From Methylovulum sp. (GTDB lineage: Bacteria; Pseudomonadota; Gammaproteobacteria; Methylococcales; Methylomonadaceae): DNA of 64,000 nt. A program made the translations under genes and the position numbers. This document shows, piece by piece, positions 137 to 8,892 of this stretch. The first letter of the stretch is position 1. Each line of letters opens with the position of its first letter. The notes beneath the pieces are model-generated. The model ran no database searches. It had not been told where the DNA came from and was given only the letters and a program-made list of their open reading frames with translations. Where the stretch lies: the NCBI GenBank assembly GCA_030653435.1, contig JAURZI010000044.1:1-64000 (forward strand). The letters run 5' to 3'.

Positions 137-221
137 CTAAGCTGCCTGTGCGGCAGTTAACCAGGCGGCGCTGGTGGTCAAGGTGGCGCAGGCTTTCTAA
201 GCTGCCTGTGCGGCAGTTAAC
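134..221 (-). CRISPR. Type I-F CRISPR array, leader-proximal end (two repeats, one 32-nt spacer visible)
   Basis: The leader-proximal repeat is 194-221 (28 nt; minus strand starts GTTAACTGCC and ends CTTAGAAA). The second is 134-161 and lacks the terminal AAA. Both carry the hairpin CTGCC-GCACA-GGCAG recognised by Cas6f. The spacer 162-193 is exactly 32 nt, the standard I-F length. The array lies directly downstream of cas6f with the leader in between, so it is read leftwards. The second repeat is cut by the presumed IS end, so older spacers may continue beyond the left edge. Repeat length, spacer length and neighbouring genes all agree with subtype I-F. Confidence 0.9.
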
Positions 222-1960: not shown

Positions 1961-2881
1961 TTATGCTCCAAAGATGTTTGAGGTTGAATAAGTTGGGGTT
2001 GAAAGGGTTTGGCAAAGGTATAAGTTTTGTTCCAGATCGACATGGGTTTGCCAGAGCATGTCGTCTAGGTTTTCAATACGATAAGGCATTTTAAATTCGC
2101 CTAAAGTGATGACACTTTCGGCAAAACGGTGTGGAGTGTTGGGGTCGCGTTGGTTTTTGGCTTTGCCAAGTTCGGAAATGCCTTGAAAGCCTGTGGCTAT
2201 CGGCACTAACCAGCCTGCGGTAAGGCGTTTGCTAGTCCACGTTACCTTGCCTTCTTCATCTTGCTGGGCGCGGTGCATGATTTTGAGGTGGTCTAACAAA
2301 GCATCCAGCGCGTCTTTGTTTTCATCGAGCATGGTTTGTTGCATCAAATCGCGGCGCTCGATAAGGACATAGCCCAGCATGAGTTTTTTCAGGGTTTTTC
2401 TGAGATCGTTATCGTCGTCTTCATCTACTGACAATGGTTCTATCTTCTTGGCAGACAACACATCGCCGCCTGCCATTTTCATGCGCTGAATTTGTTGATT
2501 AACGGCTTCAAGCAACTGTTCGCGATCATCGCTATCCACGCCGAAATATTCCACCAGCAGCGACACTTGCAAATGGCAACGAGCCTCCTCAATAAACGCC
2601 GGACGGCTGCCGTCTTTATCCAGCGGGTTGGCGGTGCCGATGATGGATTGGACAAAATCGTTAGGCCCTTTATACGTCTGTAAATCGAATTGATGGCACA
2701 CAACGGCAACGCTGGTTAATTGCACATCGGGGAAACCGTGCTGGCGTAATTGCCGTTGCAAGGCGTGGACTGCACCGAGCCATGCAGTCATCGCCGGAAA
2801 GCCGATGGTGTAAGGGCTGCTCATGGCATTGGCGTTGTGGATGTTGATTTTGGGCAGTAATAAAAACTGTCTGATGCTCAT
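1961..2881 (-). CDS. cas5f: Type I-F Cascade subunit Cas5f (Csy2)
   Basis: Caps the 5' handle of the crRNA and pairs with Cas8f at the PAM-recognition end of the I-F complex. The 306-residue length is normal. The N-terminal strand QFLLLPKINIHNANAMSSPY, with the ferredoxin-like RAMP fold expected there, and the following TIGFPAMTAWLGAVHAL are characteristic of Csy2. Its ATG overlaps the cas8f stop codon as ATGA (2878-2881), so the two are translationally coupled. No frameshift or missing segment is seen. Confidence 0.92.
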   Translation of the reverse strand: MSIRQFLLLPKINIHNANAMSSPYTIGFPAMTAWLGAVHALQRQLRQHGFPDVQLTSVAVVCHQFDLQTYKGPNDFVQSIIGTANPLDKDGSRPAFIEEARCHLQVSLLVEYFGVDSDDREQLLEAVNQQIQRMKMAGGDVLSAKKIEPLSVDEDDDNDLRKTLKKLMLGYVLIERRDLMQQTMLDENKDALDALLDHLKIMHRAQQDEEGKVTWTSKRLTAGWLVPIATGFQGISELGKAKNQRDPNTPHRFAESVITLGEFKMPYRIENLDDMLWQTHVDLEQNLYLCQTLSTPTYSTSNIFGA

Positions 2882-4134
2882 TTGAAAAACTCCTGATCGT
2901 CGGTAACGGCTTGCTTGACGAGTTCGCGCACGGCGCGTAATTCGTGGTCGCTTAAGGTGCTGTAATTGTCTTTAAACAAGTATTCGTAGGTATCCAGCAA
3001 CCAGCGGGCAAAATCCGCCACTACGTCGTCTAGCCAATCGTCTTGCTGTTCGCGTTGTTCCAGATGGGCATCGTCCAACCAAATGCGTTGGTATTTCGGC
3101 AGGTTTTGGTAATGTTCGGCTTCTGACCAGCCCACTCCATAAGCGCGGATGCTGAAAACACGTTGCAATACTTGGTCGATGATGAATTTCAGGCAGTTTT
3201 GTATGCCTATTTTTACATCATATCTGGGGGCGCCAGCTCCAGTGCGGATGAGCTTGTCCAGCGGCAGATAAGCGTCTTTAAAGGCTTTAGCGCGTAAGCT
3301 GTTGCGGAAAAAATCATGGCTGGGCAAGCGGGTTTTCCGTTGTTGAAAACTGGGGGGAAGGCTTGCCAACAAATAAGCGCGTCCGGCATTTTGGCTGTTC
3401 AACACGCTGACGTTTTGCGGTTGTGTGCCGCCAAAAGCCGTGACGGTCAGGTTTAGCACGTCATCATAACCTGTGGCGTGGTGTTCTTTTTTCCGACGGC
3501 TTTCTTTGGCTTGTTTGGTTTCATCAGAAAAACGCACAAAGTCAATACGGGTTTTCACTTGGGTGAGTAAGCCGGATGGAGTGAGCAATGAAAGCAGGTG
3601 GTAATCGTCACCAATCGGAAAATAAACTTGTTTGACTAAGTGGTCGGTTTTACTTGTGCTATCCAATTGCTTGATGCTGGTGAAGCCTTGTTTTAACTCG
3701 TCATAGCTTGCCGTTGGCAGGGTAAACAGCGCGGTAATTTCAGGGCTGTCTTCTTCCAAATGCGCCAATACAGTTTTACCGTCCTCCATCGTCAGGCTGA
3801 GGAATTTATACACATCCATCGCCGCCGCGTTGCCGAAAACATCTAATTCATAATCGACATTGCCCGTCCGCAAATAGCCGTCGTTAGCGCGTGGGCTGTC
3901 CGCTATCACGGGCGAGGTTTTCGCGCTGGGATGGCTAAACTTGCCAGGGTGGCTGACCATCGTCAGTTGTGGTGCGCGCCTGGCGGCATCGGGCAGCCAA
4001 TTTGCCAAGGCGAATTTTTCGCTAGCTTCTTGTTGTAGTTCGGCTTGTTCCTCCGGGCTTAGGGTGGGTTTTAGCTTGGCTTTTAGCCACGCGGCTTTGC
4101 GGTCTGCAAAAAAATCAGTGATGTTTTGACTCAT
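2878..4134 (-). CDS. cas8f: Type I-F Cascade large subunit Cas8f (Csy1)
   Basis: Recognises the CC PAM and opens DNA for crRNA pairing, then recruits Cas2-3. The 418 residues match the usual 420-440 of Csy1. The N-terminus MSQNITDFFADRKAAWLK is characteristic and the C-terminal helical domain ends LVKQAVTDDQEFFK. This is the first gene of the four-gene interference unit. It follows a 469-base gap rather than cas2-3 directly, with its own promoter near 4215-4250. A GGAG ribosome site lies 11 bases before the ATG. Its promoter carries the target of the crRNA-like unit at 4303-4382. Confidence 0.92.
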   Translation of the reverse strand: MSQNITDFFADRKAAWLKAKLKPTLSPEEQAELQQEASEKFALANWLPDAARRAPQLTMVSHPGKFSHPSAKTSPVIADSPRANDGYLRTGNVDYELDVFGNAAAMDVYKFLSLTMEDGKTVLAHLEEDSPEITALFTLPTASYDELKQGFTSIKQLDSTSKTDHLVKQVYFPIGDDYHLLSLLTPSGLLTQVKTRIDFVRFSDETKQAKESRRKKEHHATGYDDVLNLTVTAFGGTQPQNVSVLNSQNAGRAYLLASLPPSFQQRKTRLPSHDFFRNSLRAKAFKDAYLPLDKLIRTGAGAPRYDVKIGIQNCLKFIIDQVLQRVFSIRAYGVGWSEAEHYQNLPKYQRIWLDDAHLEQREQQDDWLDDVVADFARWLLDTYEYLFKDNYSTLSDHELRAVRELVKQAVTDDQEFFK

Positions 4135-4198
4135 GGTTGGGGTAACTCCATCAGGGTGGTTTCGTTGTAATTATTGCGAGTGTTTCATAAAAAGTCAG

Positions 4199-4216
4199 CC
4201 GTCATATTTTTAGTAT
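4199..4216 (+). promoter_or_regulatory. PAM-flanked pseudo-protospacer in the cas8f promoter
   Basis: CC at 4199-4200 is the type I-F PAM on the 5' side. The next 16 bases (GTCATATTTTTAGTAT) equal the first 16 bases of the spacer at 4331-4346 except position 12 (A for G). The first 11 bases, which include the whole seed, match perfectly; beyond base 16 the match drops (17 of 24 overall). Such a site should bind Cascade without full R-loop formation. It overlaps the -10 region and expected start of the cas8f operon. Confidence 0.75.
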
Positions 4217-4250
4217 TATAAATATATTTCTTTTTGAATACCGATTTGAA
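4215..4250 (-). promoter_or_regulatory. Predicted cas8f operon promoter
   Basis: On the minus strand two overlapping -10 elements are visible: TATATT at 4227-4222, with TTCAAA at 4250-4245 eighteen bases upstream, and a perfect TATAAT at 4220-4215 with a weak -35. Either would start transcription near 4208-4215, about 75-80 bases before the cas8f ATG. The stretch 4201-4216 over the start region matches the 5' end of the crRNA-like spacer at 4331, with CC at 4199-4200. No start site has been measured. Confidence 0.55.
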
Positions 4251-4275
4251 CTCATGGACAGCTTTGCGCTAAATT
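4246..4275 (+). promoter_or_regulatory. Possible promoter of the crRNA-like unit
   Basis: TTGAAC at 4246-4251 and TAAATT at 4270-4275 are spaced by 18 bases, each four of six to the sigma-70 consensus. They point towards the repeat at 4303, giving a start near 4282. The arrangement is divergent from the cas8f promoter, whose -35 overlaps this one. The match is weak and inferred. Confidence 0.35.
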
Positions 4276-4302
4276 AGCCTTGGCTTTCCTATCAAAAAAG
4301 CC

Positions 4303-4382
4303 GTTTACTGCCGCATAGGCAGCTTAGAAAGTCATATTTTTGGTATGTTTATATTTTTTCTGCCGTACAGGCAGCTTTTTGC
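4303..4382 (+). ncRNA. CreR-like Cas-regulating RNA (repeat - 24-nt spacer - degenerate repeat)
   Basis: The first repeat, 4303-4330, is 26/28 identical to the array repeat, including the terminal CTTAGAAA that becomes the crRNA 5' handle. The second, 4355-4382, is only about 19/28 identical but keeps the Cas6f hairpin CTGCC-GTACA-GGCAG intact. The spacer between them is 24 nt, not 32. Its 5' end matches the cas8f promoter (4201-4216, 15/16) directly after a CC PAM. It is on the strand opposite to the cas genes. Known CreR RNAs in other CRISPR subtypes have this make-up: a lone unit inside the cas locus, a degenerate second repeat, and limited seed-end pairing to a cas promoter giving repression without cleavage. 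An autorepressor of the cas8f operon is the best reading; a decayed mini-array is the alternative. Confidence 0.72.
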
Positions 4383-4603
4383 TCGATTGCTCGTTTGCTC
4401 GTTCCCAAGCTCCGGCTTGGGAATGCCGTATGGGAAGCTCTAGCTTCCCGTTGTTCTTGAAGCTAGAGCTTCTAAAACTTGAGTTACCAAGCTGAAGCTT
4501 GGGAACTAGCACTATCTATTTTGTAGGATGGGCAAACAGCTTTATCGTTTGCCCACCATTAGCTACAAAAAAATGGTGGGCTGAAAAGCGTTGACCACCC
4601 TAC
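4383..4603. repeat. Cluster of REP-like palindromes between the two cas units
   Basis: Several inverted repeats are packed here: CCCAAGCTCCGGCTTGGG near 4404-4421, GAAGCTCTAGCTTC near 4435-4448, the pair AGCTAGAGCTTCT/CAAGCTGAAGCTTGGG further on, and GATGGGCAAAC...GTTTGCCCACC near 4528-4557. A last palindrome (ATGGTGGGCTGAAAAGCG...CCACCCTAC) ends at the cas2-3 stop codon. These look like dispersed intergenic repeats and could act as transcription or mRNA end signals for cas2-3. No convincing gene is seen. Confidence 0.6.
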
Positions 4604-7600
4604 TTAATCTTTACGGGGAAACAGGCCGAACTGGTCGGAATAAGACCAACCCCGTTTTTCTTCGCGGAAAGTAATTTCCCCGTAGCGTTTTGATTTTTTC
4701 AGCATCAAAACCTCGTCTTCTCCTTCTTCATCGGTGTTGTGCAAAAGTTCGCGCAGTGCAGTTCCGTAATCTCTTGTTAACCATAATCGGGCTTGCGCTT
4801 CGGCAGATAAGGGCGGCGCGGGTTTAATGTTGGCTCTGTCGCCGAAAGGCACAAAATCACCGCGTTCGGTTTTTTCGTTAAACATCGGTTTCCCGTCTTG
4901 CCAAAGCAAATACAGCGTGTCGTCTTGGCTGTTGTCTCTGAAACGGTTGATTTGTTGCGGTACGGCGGTCAACCACCAGCATTCGCTTAACCAAGCTTGC
5001 AAACCTTGTGGACCTTTGCTTTGGTAGTGGGTCAGGCTGTTGTTTAGGGCTTGATGCTCCAAATCCGCCAGTTGTTGGTTCGGGCGTAAGGTTTCGGGTT
5101 GTTGGATGCGGGGAATAGCGTTGATGGTTGTATTCAAGGCGTTTTCATCCAGCAGTTGGCAGACATCAGGCGTGACCAGTTTTAATGATTTCACCTCGTA
5201 ACCTGGTCGGTAAAACACGGGTGCACCGTTACGTTGCCAGTTTGCGGGTGTGTAATCTTTAAGCGTGGCGATATGCCGTAAGGCTTTTAAATTGAATTGC
5301 ATGATGGCAATGTTGGCGTGTTCAACCGCACTATGCCGATGGCGGCGCACCCGTCCGGCAAGCTGGATGATGGAACGGTAGGACGACGGTTCGATAATCG
5401 CCCAATCAAAATCATGATCCCTGCCAACTTCTTCCACGGGCGTTGCCACCACAATGTACAGCACGTCTTGCGCGGTGGTGGTTTGCAAATGCGTTCGAAT
5501 AATTGGGTTGTTGAAGGCTTCCGGCATTGCGCCGTTTGCTTCTTTGCGCTTTAACACCGCATCCAAATGGGCTTCTTGTTGATGGCGCAGTAACAGCACT
5601 TGGCGGCTATGGTAGGCCATGATTTTGGGTGCGGTTTCGTCCCAGACCGCTTGTAGTAAATATTGAGTGAGTTCGACGCAGGGCGGGATATTAGCTACAC
5701 GAATCACACCAAACGACACACGCTTGCCTGTGGTTTTATCGACGGTGTGGTGGTGTTGATGCAAGTTGATAGCGGTTTGTTTGATGCTTTCAAAGTACAC
5801 AGGCTGGAAATCTTTTTTTGCCGCCAGTGCATCATCGCATCGAACAATAAAGGCTTTGCGTTTAACAGGTTGTTTTTGTAGGTTGCTGACGCGTTTGGTT
5901 ATAAAGGCTTGATGGAAAGCGCGATAGTTTTGGCAGCGGGTTGTCGAGTCGTGATTATCGACGGCTTGGACTTGGCTACCAAATTCATCCACCCACGCGC
6001 AAGCGACCATTGGCAGCGTATCCCGAAAATGGCTGTGTAATGTCCAGCCCGCTTGGTAGGCGTTAAAAAAACCTTCCGCCACGGCAGGCGGGATGGTGGC
6101 GGAGGAAATCATCACTTTACGCCCCAACATGCCCGCCAAGTGAATGAGCCTGCCAATGGCGATTAAGTCTTTGCCGTCAAAATCATCGACCTCATCAATC
6201 ACCAAGTCGGAAGACAGCAGACGCAAGCAAGGCAGCATATATTTGCCGCCGCGTAAGGTTTCGGTGGCGGCGATAATGTGGTCTATGGTGCAGGCTAAGA
6301 CGGGTTTGTATAAAAAGGCTTTGTTTTTGTCTGCCAGCTTGGGGTTGTGTTTGGGGAATAAAACGTCGAGGAAGTCGGCGGTGGGGGCTTCGTCGAAATC
6401 CAGTTCTTCGCTCAACAGGGTTTCCAATGATTCCGAACCGGATTCTTCGTAAGACGGTAGTTCTTCGTTATCTTGCTGGGTTTTTTCGTGCAATTCTTTC
6501 ACTGCCGCCGAACCAATCAACACCGCCAATTCGTCATTGCTTAAACCAATGCGGTGTTTATATTCATCGCCTGTTTGCAAGGTTAAGGTTCGTAAACCCA
6601 AAGCCAGAATAAAACGCAGGCTGTCACCGTCGTATGATAGTGCCCGCATAATTTTGGCGTTGGCAATGGTTTTTCCGCAACCTGTACTTGCCATATTGAC
6701 GATGAACCAGCCGTGGCTTTTGCCGCCTTGGTTTTGATTTTTAAAATTCAATATTTTTTCAACGGCTTTGTCTTGCCATTCGTAACCTTTGGGGCTTTTT
6801 TGCTTTAAGTTTTTGATGTCATAAGCCAACGACATTTCGGTGCTGAAACGGGATAAGGTTTGGCTGATTTTTAACGCTTGTTCGCTGACCCGTACCAAAT
6901 GCTCGTCCAATTTCTGTTTGGGTTTGCGGTGTTGGTCGGTATTGGCAAGCAGGGTGATGGTGGTTTTCCATTCTTTTTCCGCTTCGCAGGACGAATAGAA
7001 ATGGTCGCCCAGCATCAAGCACAAACGGGCGTGGTGCAGCACGACGCGGTAACTGCCGTTATCCAATAGGCTTTGGATTTGTGGTTGGTTTTGCCAAAGT
7101 TTTGCTGACCATTTTTGCAGTTGTTTTAACCAAGGTTTTGATTGGCTGAGCAAGCCTTCTGGAAAATTAAAACAGCCTTGCAAGCGTTTTTCATCGTCGT
7201 TTTTATTCTGATAGCCCCAAGTTGCGGTAATACCTTTTAGTAGTTTGTCTAGGTTTTCTCTACCTTGATTGGCTTCCTGTTTGGGTTCGGCCCGATAAGG
7301 CAAACGATGATGGCTCAAAATTAGCCAGCCGACCAATTGTGCAATCGGCGGCAGGTTATCCAACGGTTTGCTATTGTTGGTGGCAACAGCTTGCTTTAAT
7401 GCCTGTTCGTTCAGTTCGCCACTAGCCAATAACTGCAACCAACCTTCATCGGTATTTCCTGCTTGCTGTACCAGCGCATTTAACAAAAGACACGAAATCC
7501 ATTCATGCCGGAGCGGATCGCCTTTGGGCGTTCCTGATTTGAGTTTGCTTTGAAACAACGCCGTCGCCTTGCCCCAATCGTGCAATAAAGCGGCGATAGC

Positions 7601-7948
7601 TATCAATGCCTTAATCACCGGTAAAAATTGCCAATCATTCTCCCAATGGCTATTCGCCAAATTTTTGCGTGTGCTATTCACAGGCACAATCCCTTCCGAA
7701 TTAAAACACCGCCGATTCCCCACAATCCAAACCAATTCACTCCGACTTCTCGAACGTTGCCAATGGCAAGCCACCGCCGTATTTTTTGTAGCCGTTTTGC
7801 GTAACAAGGTTTTAACGGCAATCAGGCCGTCTTCGGTGATGACGGTTTGCCAGGTGTTGTCGCCGATGCGGTTGGCAAAGGCATCGAGGACTCGGCGGGT
7901 GCGGGTTAGGGCTTTTTTCTGGCATTGGCTGACAAAGGTCACCATCAT
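4604..7948 (-). CDS. cas2-3: Type I-F fused Cas2-Cas3 nuclease-helicase
   Basis: The 1114-residue protein combines an N-terminal Cas2-like domain (about residues 1-95), an HD nuclease domain and a superfamily 2 helicase, the fusion diagnostic of subtype I-F. Visible motifs are LLHDWGKA for the HD nuclease (about residue 117), Walker A ASTGCGKT (about 415), the DEVD box VIDEVDDF (about 595) and the helicase motif VI region LAGRVRRHRH (about 890). It degrades DNA after Cascade binding and joins Cas1 in spacer integration. Its ATG overlaps the cas1 stop as ATGA. All core motifs are present, so it is probably active. Confidence 0.94.
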   Translation of the reverse strand: MMVTFVSQCQKKALTRTRRVLDAFANRIGDNTWQTVITEDGLIAVKTLLRKTATKNTAVACHWQRSRSRSELVWIVGNRRCFNSEGIVPVNSTRKNLANSHWENDWQFLPVIKALIAIAALLHDWGKATALFQSKLKSGTPKGDPLRHEWISCLLLNALVQQAGNTDEGWLQLLASGELNEQALKQAVATNNSKPLDNLPPIAQLVGWLILSHHRLPYRAEPKQEANQGRENLDKLLKGITATWGYQNKNDDEKRLQGCFNFPEGLLSQSKPWLKQLQKWSAKLWQNQPQIQSLLDNGSYRVVLHHARLCLMLGDHFYSSCEAEKEWKTTITLLANTDQHRKPKQKLDEHLVRVSEQALKISQTLSRFSTEMSLAYDIKNLKQKSPKGYEWQDKAVEKILNFKNQNQGGKSHGWFIVNMASTGCGKTIANAKIMRALSYDGDSLRFILALGLRTLTLQTGDEYKHRIGLSNDELAVLIGSAAVKELHEKTQQDNEELPSYEESGSESLETLLSEELDFDEAPTADFLDVLFPKHNPKLADKNKAFLYKPVLACTIDHIIAATETLRGGKYMLPCLRLLSSDLVIDEVDDFDGKDLIAIGRLIHLAGMLGRKVMISSATIPPAVAEGFFNAYQAGWTLHSHFRDTLPMVACAWVDEFGSQVQAVDNHDSTTRCQNYRAFHQAFITKRVSNLQKQPVKRKAFIVRCDDALAAKKDFQPVYFESIKQTAINLHQHHHTVDKTTGKRVSFGVIRVANIPPCVELTQYLLQAVWDETAPKIMAYHSRQVLLLRHQQEAHLDAVLKRKEANGAMPEAFNNPIIRTHLQTTTAQDVLYIVVATPVEEVGRDHDFDWAIIEPSSYRSIIQLAGRVRRHRHSAVEHANIAIMQFNLKALRHIATLKDYTPANWQRNGAPVFYRPGYEVKSLKLVTPDVCQLLDENALNTTINAIPRIQQPETLRPNQQLADLEHQALNNSLTHYQSKGPQGLQAWLSECWWLTAVPQQINRFRDNSQDDTLYLLWQDGKPMFNEKTERGDFVPFGDRANIKPAPPLSAEAQARLWLTRDYGTALRELLHNTDEEGEDEVLMLKKSKRYGEITFREEKRGWSYSDQFGLFPRKD

Positions 7949-8892
7949 GGCTGGTTTTCCTGTAAGGCTTGTTGTTTGACTTGTTCAAACATGAAATCCA
8001 GAGCTTTGTGTTCGGTGAATTTTTGCAGGAGTTGTTGGCGGAAGTCTTGTTCGCCCATTTTTTCTTTGGCTGAGATAAATGCCCACGGCAGGACGATGGC
8101 ATCTTTGATGAGGTCGGCGACATCGAAGACTAACGCGCCGCGCCGGGTTTTGCCGTGCATGACGGCAAAACCGTGCGGTATGCCCAGCACCCAGAGCGTG
8201 GTGGCGGCGAGTCCGTAGGCCAGGTAATTGCCGTGGTTTAAAAAGCCGTTGGCAAGGTCGGTGGCTTGGTGGTCGCGGGTGAAACCGCCCTGCCCTGTGC
8301 TTTGGGCGGCGTAGCGGTAGAGTTGTTTGGTGAGCAGGGCTTCGCGCTGGAGCAGGTCGCCCACTTTGTTGGCGGTGTCGATTTGGTTGCGGTGTGTTTT
8401 TAAGGATTCGCTAAGGCTATGGTCGTCGGTATAAAAGTTTTCGGCTTTTAAGTCGCGGTCTTTTTGCCAGATTTTTTGTAGGTAGTCGAGGCGGGCATGT
8501 TGGAAGCTTTTGGCGACGACGAGACGTTTTTGTTCATCAAACCAAAATGTTAGCCAACCTTGGACGTAGTCGGTGGGGCGGTATTCGCTTTGCGGGGTGA
8601 GCCATTCAATTTCGCTGCCGGAAAACAACGGCGTTCCACCGCCGCCGCAAAAACCGACCAATACGCCCGCACTGGCTAGCATCCGCATGGCGGCTTGGGT
8701 GATGGAGGTGCCTGTGCCCAGCAGGATGACTGTGGTGTTGGCGATGGGTATGTTCCAGTAATAGTTTTCGTCTTTGGCTTCGGTGAGGTACAGCACCCGA
8801 CCGTCTTTCTGCATGACCCGGCATTTTTCCAAGTAGTAAATATTCGCCCGCTTGGAATGCAAGATAGCTTTTAAGTCTGACAAGGCTTCCAT
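7945..8892 (-). CDS. cas1: CRISPR integrase Cas1 (type I-F)
   Basis: Inserts new spacers at the leader end of the array together with the Cas2 domain of Cas2-3. The length of 315 residues is typical for I-F Cas1. The N-terminal beta domain (LHSKRANIYYLEKCRVM) leads into the helical catalytic domain, where the metal ligands H in VMHGKTRRG and D in VFDVADLIKD (about residues 235-250) are present. A strong GGAGG ribosome site precedes the ATG by 6 bases. The gene begins only 26 bases after the AIM24-like gene and may be read through from it, since no separate promoter is obvious. Confidence 0.93.
   Translation of the reverse strand: MEALSDLKAILHSKRANIYYLEKCRVMQKDGRVLYLTEAKDENYYWNIPIANTTVILLGTGTSITQAAMRMLASAGVLVGFCGGGGTPLFSGSEIEWLTPQSEYRPTDYVQGWLTFWFDEQKRLVVAKSFQHARLDYLQKIWQKDRDLKAENFYTDDHSLSESLKTHRNQIDTANKVGDLLQREALLTKQLYRYAAQSTGQGGFTRDHQATDLANGFLNHGNYLAYGLAATTLWVLGIPHGFAVMHGKTRRGALVFDVADLIKDAIVLPWAFISAKEKMGEQDFRQQLLQKFTEHKALDFMFEQVKQQALQENQP

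What the first reader, a model, noticed from the sequence alone, without database searches (positions are those of the whole stretch)
4199..4382. Candidate CreR: a crRNA-like RNA aimed at its own cas8f promoter in a type I-F locus
Seen directly: a repeat 26/28 identical to the array repeat (4303-4330), a 24-nt spacer (4331-4354), and a degenerate second repeat that keeps the Cas6f hairpin. The first 16 spacer bases match 4201-4216 at 15 positions, including all of the first 11, and that site has CC at 4199-4200, the I-F PAM, on the correct side. It overlaps the -10 and expected start of the cas8f promoter. Known: CreR RNAs in other subtypes repress cas promoters through such partial matches, and short or partial guides bind without cleavage. 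Inferred: Cascade loaded with this RNA represses its own operon, and the loss of Cascade (for example by an anti-CRISPR) would relieve it.
Basis: partly seen in the sequence, partly recalled or inferred. Interest (0 to 1): 0.93.

Follow-up and report, generated by a model that had tools for sequence, protein, structure and literature searches.

The report
CRISPR guide aimed at own promoter
Beside its CRISPR defence genes this bacterium, a relative of methane oxidisers, carries a tiny CRISPR unit whose short guide matches the promoter of those same genes, very probably a self-silencing dial of an already described kind (CreR); relatives carry different guides that still fit their own promoters.

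Summary
A two-repeat mini-CRISPR (4303-4382, +) lies in the 469-bp cas3-csy1 gap of a complete type I-F locus. Its 24-nt guide matches 4201-4216 at 15 of 16 positions beside a CC PAM; the mismatch is position 12, a flipped-out position of type I guides. In 20,000 shuffles the best match was 12 of 15 scored positions, against 14. The assembly holds one exact copy of the 17-base PAM+seed pattern.

Relatives settle what it is. Of 174 csy1 upstream regions (overlapping sets), 54 gave a hit, two of them spurious, leaving 40 distinct guides; controls gave 3 and 0-4. Guides differ between loci yet match their own promoter. Matching dips at positions 6, 12 and 18 and fades after 17. In 28 nearest-neighbour pairs, 148 pairing positions differ on both sides with pairing kept, 35 otherwise.

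One correction: the csy1 promoter most likely abuts the PAM (-35 4198-4193, -10 4175-4170), so the target lies just upstream of it.

Best reading: CreR-type autorepression of the Csy operon; expression and repression are untested. CreTA is unlikely. The kind is known; guide lengths clustering near 6N-4 nt may be new.

The parts
4303..4330 (+). first repeat of the mini-CRISPR (26/28 to the array repeat); supplies the 5' handle CTTAGAAA (4323-4330)
   Evidence: alone it folds to a hairpin of -8.6 kcal/mol
4331..4354 (+). 24-nt CreR guide
   Evidence: 24 nt against 32 nt for the one complete array spacer in the window
4355..4382 (+). degenerate second repeat; Cas6f-type hairpin kept at 4360-4374, handle lost; the hairpin plus T-run also scores as terminator-like
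4323..4374 (+). predicted mature CreR RNA (8-nt handle + 24-nt guide + 20-nt 3' part = 52 nt)
   Evidence: inferred from I-F processing as reported for Acinetobacter CreA: 8-nt 5' handle, 20-nt 3' handle
4201..4224 (+). target; positions 1-16 match but for 12; of 17-24 only 19 and 21 match
4199..4200 (+). CC PAM
   Evidence: I-F PAM is CC
4170..4198 (-). most likely csy1 promoter: -35 CTGACT 4198-4193 abutting the PAM, 17 nt, -10 AATAAT 4175-4170
   Evidence: by itself not above chance there: 2 promoter-like sites, shuffles 0.9 +/- 1.0; a promoter within 0-2 nt of the PAM in 25 of 37 loci against 1.3 expected
4246..4275 (+). possible creR promoter TTGAAC-18-TAAATT (start near 4282), read by eye, 8 of 12 consensus bases
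   Evidence: below the threshold of the scan; weak
2878..4134 (-). csy1 / cas8f, first gene of the effector operon (csy2 1961-2881, csy3 941-1957, csy4 353-937)
   Evidence: TIGR02564, 02565, 02566, 02563, all over cut-off
4604..8892 (-). cas3f (4604-7948) and cas1f (7945-8892)
   Evidence: TIGR02562, TIGR03637, over cut-off
137..221 (-). start of the canonical array (two repeats, one 32-nt spacer), cut off by what looks by eye like an insertion element at the contig edge; 21 further repeats are on contig C82

Best explanation
4303-4382 is a CreR gene for the type I-F locus. Inferred mechanism: it is transcribed rightward, Cas6f (Csy4) trims it to a crRNA-like RNA with a 24-nt guide, and the Csy complex loaded with it binds 4201-4216 next to the CC PAM. 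There it covers or crowds the -35 of the csy1 promoter and lowers its own expression. Pairing ends near position 16 and the guide is short, so Cas3 should not be triggered and the locus is bound but not cut. When array crRNAs compete for the Csy complex, or an anti-CRISPR removes it, the brake would come off. Shown here: the unit, PAM, target, promoter register, joint divergence, the 6-nt mismatch rhythm. Inferred: transcription, processing, binding, repression, relief.
For: Anatomy. Chance excluded. 54 of 174 csy1 upstream regions gave a hit (two spurious, L013 and L103) against 3 on reversed sequence and 0-4 in 20 runs with shuffled guides; 37 of 40 distinct guides share the window's geometry. 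Matches by position, n = 41 including one spurious row: 40-41 at 1-5, 16 at 6, 34-40 at 7-11, 19 at 12, 33-41 at 13-15, 15 at 18, 12-18 at 19-24. Each of 15 family guides scores 13-15 of 15 on its own upstream region, mean 8.6 on the others. In 28 nearest-neighbour pairs, 148 pairing positions differ on both sides with pairing kept, 35 otherwise; at positions 6 and 12 it is 2 against 43. Two relatives at 73-74% Csy1 identity, L023 and L015, differ from the window by paired changes at 3, 10, 13 and, for L023, 15. PAM-abutting promoter in 25 of 37, expected 1.3. Target to csy1 start 50-100 nt in 29 of 37. In one type I-F1 system, truncated guides bind and form R-loops without Cas2/3 cleavage, lower limit about 14 nt (PMC7296934, passages).
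Against: No expression data. No + strand promoter reached the scan threshold. Folded as one 80-nt RNA, the two repeats pair with each other rather than as two hairpins. Twelve of 37 loci lack a clear PAM-abutting promoter, and eight of 37 have the target outside 50-100 nt from csy1. Three of 40 guides have another geometry. Binding just upstream of a -35 could leave transcription unaffected or help it. Seven of 30 family loci with a cas3-csy1 gap of 150 bp or more showed no unit even on a relaxed scan, and three of five order-level loci scanned late showed none. Many nearest neighbours are distant, so the pair counts show pairing maintained, not single substitutions traced.
Confidence: 0.88

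Rival explanations
1. CreTA: the unit is a CreA antitoxin RNA that silences a small toxin RNA, as in the cas3-csy1 gap of some Acinetobacter I-F loci.
For: Same gap, same subtype, same opposed orientation of creA and target, CC PAM, partial match (PMC10097628, sections 6 and 8). The window has two ATG mini-ORFs of 5-6 codons between target and csy1, and a third by eye whose stop overlaps the csy1 start.
Against: The target lies 66 nt before the csy1 ATG and only about 28 nt of leader would follow the promoter. The mini-ORFs are 18-21 bp against 33 bp in Acinetobacter, and no Shine-Dalgarno-like stretch was seen by eye before the two. No ORF of 60 aa or more between target and csy1 in 35 of 37 loci; smaller ORFs were looked for only in the window.
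Confidence: 0.04
2. A relic: one spacer accidentally taken from the locus itself, now decaying and inert.
For: Second repeat degenerate; guide shorter than a normal spacer.
Against: Across relatives guide and target differ together while flipped-out positions drift freely; a relic would lose the match at all positions alike.
Confidence: 0.03
3. The Csy complex loaded with this RNA sits upstream of the -35 as a positional activator or neutral occupant instead of a repressor.
For: The target occupies about -38 to -61 of the inferred start, a place where activators often bind (general knowledge), and does not overlap the inferred -10.
Against: The PAM abuts the -35, and Cas8f contacts the PAM (recalled); the CreA and CreR cases I saw described repress.
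Confidence: 0.04
4. Antisense RNA: the + strand RNA pairs with the csy1 transcript.
For: The unit is oriented against csy1.
Against: Mismatches fall every sixth position, which free RNA pairing does not predict, and the target is upstream of the inferred csy1 start. The CC beside each site is a condition of the search, but without it the same CC-flanked site still ranked first in 15 of 15 family loci, on the guide's strand within 500 nt.
Confidence: 0.01

Closest known systems
CreR, cas-regulating RNAs (Liu et al. 2023, Cell Host Microbe, not held; seen only as cited in passages of PMC13131331, PMC12737573 and PMC12948488)
   Same: mini-CRISPR in the cas locus, guide partly complementary to the cas promoter, autorepression relieved by crRNA or anti-CRISPR
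   Different: the cases named are I-B, I-E and V-A; this is I-F, and its function is untested
crRNA-like regulatory elements of Shmakov et al. 2023, NAR 51:8150 (not held; citation seen; abstract recalled)
   Same: as I recall the abstract: mini-arrays with guides partly complementary to cas promoters, in particular cas8, and one I-F1 mini-array shown to act as a regulatory guide
   Different: I cannot tell whether this lineage, the 6-nt mismatch rhythm, the -35 register or the length classes are in that paper
Acinetobacter I-F CreTA (PMC10097628, passages and sections 6 and 8)
   Same: I-F, cas3-csy1 gap, divergent unit, CC PAM, short guide (20 nt), Csy-dependent repression
   Different: controls a toxin RNA; no such toxin is recognisable here

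Membership tests
CreR | repeat-guide-repeat unit in a cas locus, repeats matching the cognate array | tested here: met
CreR | guide partly complementary to the promoter of the effector genes, with a correct PAM | tested here: met
   the promoter itself is predicted
CreR | pairing kept while sequence changes between relatives (my own criterion, not taken from the CreR papers) | tested here: met
CreR | transcribed and processed to a crRNA-like RNA | not testable with these tools
   hairpins and handle present; no RNA data
CreR | effector-dependent repression of cas genes, relieved by crRNA competition or anti-CRISPRs | not testable with these tools
   needs a reporter assay
CreTA | toxin gene behind the targeted promoter | tested here: inconclusive
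   66 nt from target to csy1, no ORF of 60 aa or more, two ATG mini-ORFs of 5-6 codons; an RNA toxin in the leader cannot be ruled out by sequence
RNA anti-CRISPR (Racr, solitary repeat unit) | solitary repeat on a phage or other mobile element | tested here: not met
   two repeats inside the cas locus; the 21-base string of repeat end + guide start has no exact match in viral contigs
canonical CRISPR array | leader, spacers of about 32 nt, foreign targets | tested here: not met
   24-nt guide, self target; a leader was not looked for

The most novel reading that the evidence does not exclude
CreR guides of type I-F are cut to length by whole Cas7f steps: lengths cluster near 14, 20 and 26 nt (6N-4), one to three subunits short of a normal complex. 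The cell would thus build a dedicated mini-Csy repressor, which can bind but not call Cas3, set against the -35 of its own promoter and in some loci governing extra cargo such as a HAD-family gene.
Probability: 0.35. Interest if true: 0.6.

Novelty: new member of a known kind. Interest (0 to 1): 0.45.

Why it matters
It gives a natural mutational record of CRISPR self-regulation: about 40 guide-promoter pairs that have drifted but kept pairing, so seed, flipped-out positions, length and promoter register can be read from sequence. If function is confirmed, expression of many I-F systems would depend on competition between array guides and one built-in guide.

Tried and rejected
CreTA was considered because Acinetobacter I-F loci carry one in the same gap; set aside for lack of a recognisable toxin. 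An exact copy of repeat end + guide start was sought in viral contigs and not found. A + strand promoter for the unit was not found by the scan. Whether the I-F CreR case is already printed could not be settled: Liu et al. 2023 and Shmakov et al. 2023 are not held. Searches listed papers whose passages name CreR for I-B, I-E and V-A or for type I and V-A in general; neither paper holds the words csy1 promoter or cas8f promoter.

Own errors, corrected: eleven loci matched on the minus strand were read in the wrong orientation and so shown as empty; reorients them. The 15-locus figures use only units found before that correction. Rows dropped: L013 and L103 from the 54 hits (the same inverted match inside csy1; a likely true unit of L013 appears); L120 and L180 and L007 as spurious. 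L021/L102 lie outside the 1000-nt range; L021 was set by hand as having a unit in the gap table, because searches show it. Fragment matches were not fetched, and of the order-level loci only L097-L101 were scanned, late. The relaxed scan had no control.

The length periodicity was noticed after the fact. Period 6 is strongest (R 0.545), but periods 5 and 7 also exceed chance in the same test (R 0.377 and 0.432), and the loci are related.

Full report
Locus. The window holds a complete type I-F gene set on the minus strand: cas1f 8892-7945, cas3f 7948-4604, csy1 4134-2878, csy2 2881-1961, csy3 1957-941, csy4 937-353, each over the cut-off of its NCBIfam model. The array begins at 221 and is cut near the contig edge by what looks by eye like an insertion-element transposase. 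The repeat pattern, with up to 3 mismatches allowed, was found at 24 places in the assembly: two in this array, the mini-CRISPR repeat, and 21 on contig C82.

The unit. Between cas3 and csy1 is a 469-bp gap. On its plus strand lie repeat 4303-4330, guide 4331-4354 and a degenerate repeat 4355-4382. Each repeat folded alone gives the 5-bp I-F hairpin; folded as one 80-nt RNA they pair with each other instead. The guide matches 4201-4216 at 15 of 16 positions; the mismatch is position 12, and CC precedes the site. Scoring the 15 positions of 1-17 other than 6 and 12 gives 14. The best of 20,000 dinucleotide shuffles of 4135-4302 gave 12. The own genome holds one exact copy of the 17-base PAM + seed pattern, this one, and 12 places with two mismatches, one of them the guide itself, against 33 places in all for the backwards control pattern at the same tolerance.

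Relatives. Csy1 was found in 62 of 237 genomes of the family, 71 of 311 of the order (includes the family) and 32 of 369 sampled from the class. From genome contigs the best 80 of 253 relatives were kept. I scanned 65 family loci (window included), the 80 named loci, and the 30 best class loci (one the window again). In the family set 22 of 65 gave a match, of which 21 are convincing and L007 is not. In the named and class loci 38 of 110 matched, one being the window itself and two (L120, L180) judged spurious. The scan, which counts positions 1-17 equally and demands CC, gave a hit in 54 of 174 loci (the sets overlap), two of them the same spurious match (L013, L103), and 41 distinct guides, 40 without that one. 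Controls on the same loci gave 3 with reversed sequence and 0-4 in 20 runs with shuffled guides. Of the 40, 37 have the geometry of the window: guide on the strand opposite to csy1, target on the same strand as the guide. Five order-level loci were scanned late with a stem and seed rule: L097 has a unit, L098 is the one already seen as L199, and L099-L101 have none. Records with units include Methylomonas, Methylobacter, Crenothrix, Legionella drozanskii and L. nautarum, Undibacterium, Desulfocapsa and, in another geometry, Sulfurimonas.

How they pair. Over the 41 guides the target matches 40-41 times at positions 1-5, 16 at 6, 34-40 at 7-11, 19 at 12, 33-41 at 13-15, 31 and 30 at 16-17, 15 at 18 and 12-18 after that. 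The selection counted positions 6 and 12 like all others, so the dips are not built in, though the high values elsewhere partly are. In 15 of 15 family loci the same site ranked first on the guide's strand within 500 nt when no PAM was demanded. Every sixth base of a type I guide is flipped out and unpaired (established structural knowledge, recalled). The rhythm is therefore what binding of DNA by the Csy complex predicts.

Joint divergence. In a 15 by 15 cross test the own-region scores were 13-15, mean 13.9; the other 210 averaged 8.6, five of them reaching 13 or 14. In 28 nearest-neighbour pairs, pairing positions within 1-15 showed 148 cases differing on both sides with pairing kept, 35 otherwise and 181 the same; at positions 6 and 12 the figures were 2, 43 and 11. 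Pairs share loci and some are distant, so these show pairing maintained rather than independent substitutions. The window and L023 (73% Csy1 identity) differ by paired changes at 3, 10, 13 and 15 and by one-sided changes at 16-17; with L015 (74%) the paired changes are 3, 10 and 13 and the one-sided ones 15-17. L102, at 84%, has a wholly different guide that matches its own target.

Promoter. On the csy1 strand the PAM reads GG. Over 37 loci the next four bases are most often T, T, G, A, followed by T/A-rich sequence, with a TA...T-like hexamer 17 nt on. A promoter starting 0-2 nt from the PAM was found in 25 of 37, against 1.3 expected from base shuffles; 16 of the 25 start at once with a 17-nt spacer. 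The window is of this class: CTGACT 4198-4193, AATAAT 4175-4170, also listed, where two promoter-like sites stand against 0.9 expected, so the window alone would not prove it. Either way the target is at the promoter. The target lies 50-100 nt from the csy1 start in 29 of 37 (66 in the window). In L102 (the same locus as L021), whose Csy1 is nearest to the window's among the 80 named loci, a HAD-family gene (PF12710) stands between target and csy1 and overlaps csy1's start. There the target is about 63 nt before the HAD gene, so the unit follows the operon promoter rather than csy1 itself.

Where it occurs. Of 65 family loci, those with a cas3-csy1 gap under 150 bp had a unit in 0 of 27; with a larger gap in 19 of 30 (L021 entered by hand); and where no cas3 was found in the fetched DNA in 2 of 8. 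A relaxed scan without a control added four of the larger-gap loci (L002, L013, L044, L046), making 23 of 30.

Why it should not cut. Guide lengths in the 40 loci are 14-15 (2), 18-21 (20), 24-27 (15) and 29, 31, 37 (one each); none is 32. In the A. actinomycetemcomitans I-F1 system the number of Cas7f subunits follows L = 6N - 4, complexes form down to about 14 nt, and short R-loops do not engage Cas2/3 (PMC7296934, passages). The length clusters sit near 14, 20 and 26 (period 6: R 0.545; 0 of 20,000 draws from a smooth distribution as strong). This was seen after the fact, the second repeat was placed by similarity, and periods 5 and 7 are also above chance.

Reading. The evidence points to CreR-type autorepression of the Csy operon. 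The steps from transcription to repression are inferred from described CreA and CreR cases. CreTA lacks a recognisable toxin, though the leader holds mini-ORFs of 5-6 codons. Relic, antisense and chance are hard to square with the joint divergence and the 6-nt rhythm.

Novelty. CreR is named in print for I-B, I-E and V-A (PMC13131331, passage), and a Csy-guided CreA in the same gap for Acinetobacter I-F (PMC10097628). I recall, but could not open, Shmakov et al. 2023, whose abstract reports mini-arrays aimed at cas8 promoters and an I-F1 case tested in the laboratory. I therefore file this as a new member of a known kind. The family-wide pairing record, the PAM-abutting -35 and the length classes are what I would look for first as possibly unreported.

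Noticed in passing
L102:3150-3998 (also L021): A 282-aa HAD-family hydrolase gene (PF12710) sits between the CreR target and csy1 and overlaps the csy1 start, so it is probably under CreR control; could be cargo or a CRISPR-repressed effector.
   Followed up: partly
1-164: The canonical array is broken after its first spacer by an apparent insertion element (by eye); 21 further repeats are on contig C82 of the same assembly.
   Followed up: partly
4401-4505: GTTCCCAAGCTCCGGCTTGGGAA-type inverted repeats, two copies at 4401-4423 and 4483-4505, lie in the rest of the cas3-csy1 gap.
   Followed up: no
L173, L175, L152: Units with other geometry (guide on the csy1 strand, or target on the opposite strand) in Sulfurimonas, Neomarinimicrobiota and Cocleimonas records.
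   Followed up: no
L133 and L134: Two Legionella species with near-identical Csy1 over the aligned part whose guides differ, within positions 1-17, only at position 6.
   Followed up: partly
L190, L202: Small ORFs (63 and 74 aa) between CreR target and csy1; possible cargo or toxin genes.
   Followed up: no
4205-4134: Mini-ORFs of 5-6 codons in the csy1 leader (a third by eye ends on the csy1 start codon); the two show no clear ribosome site by eye.
   Followed up: partly
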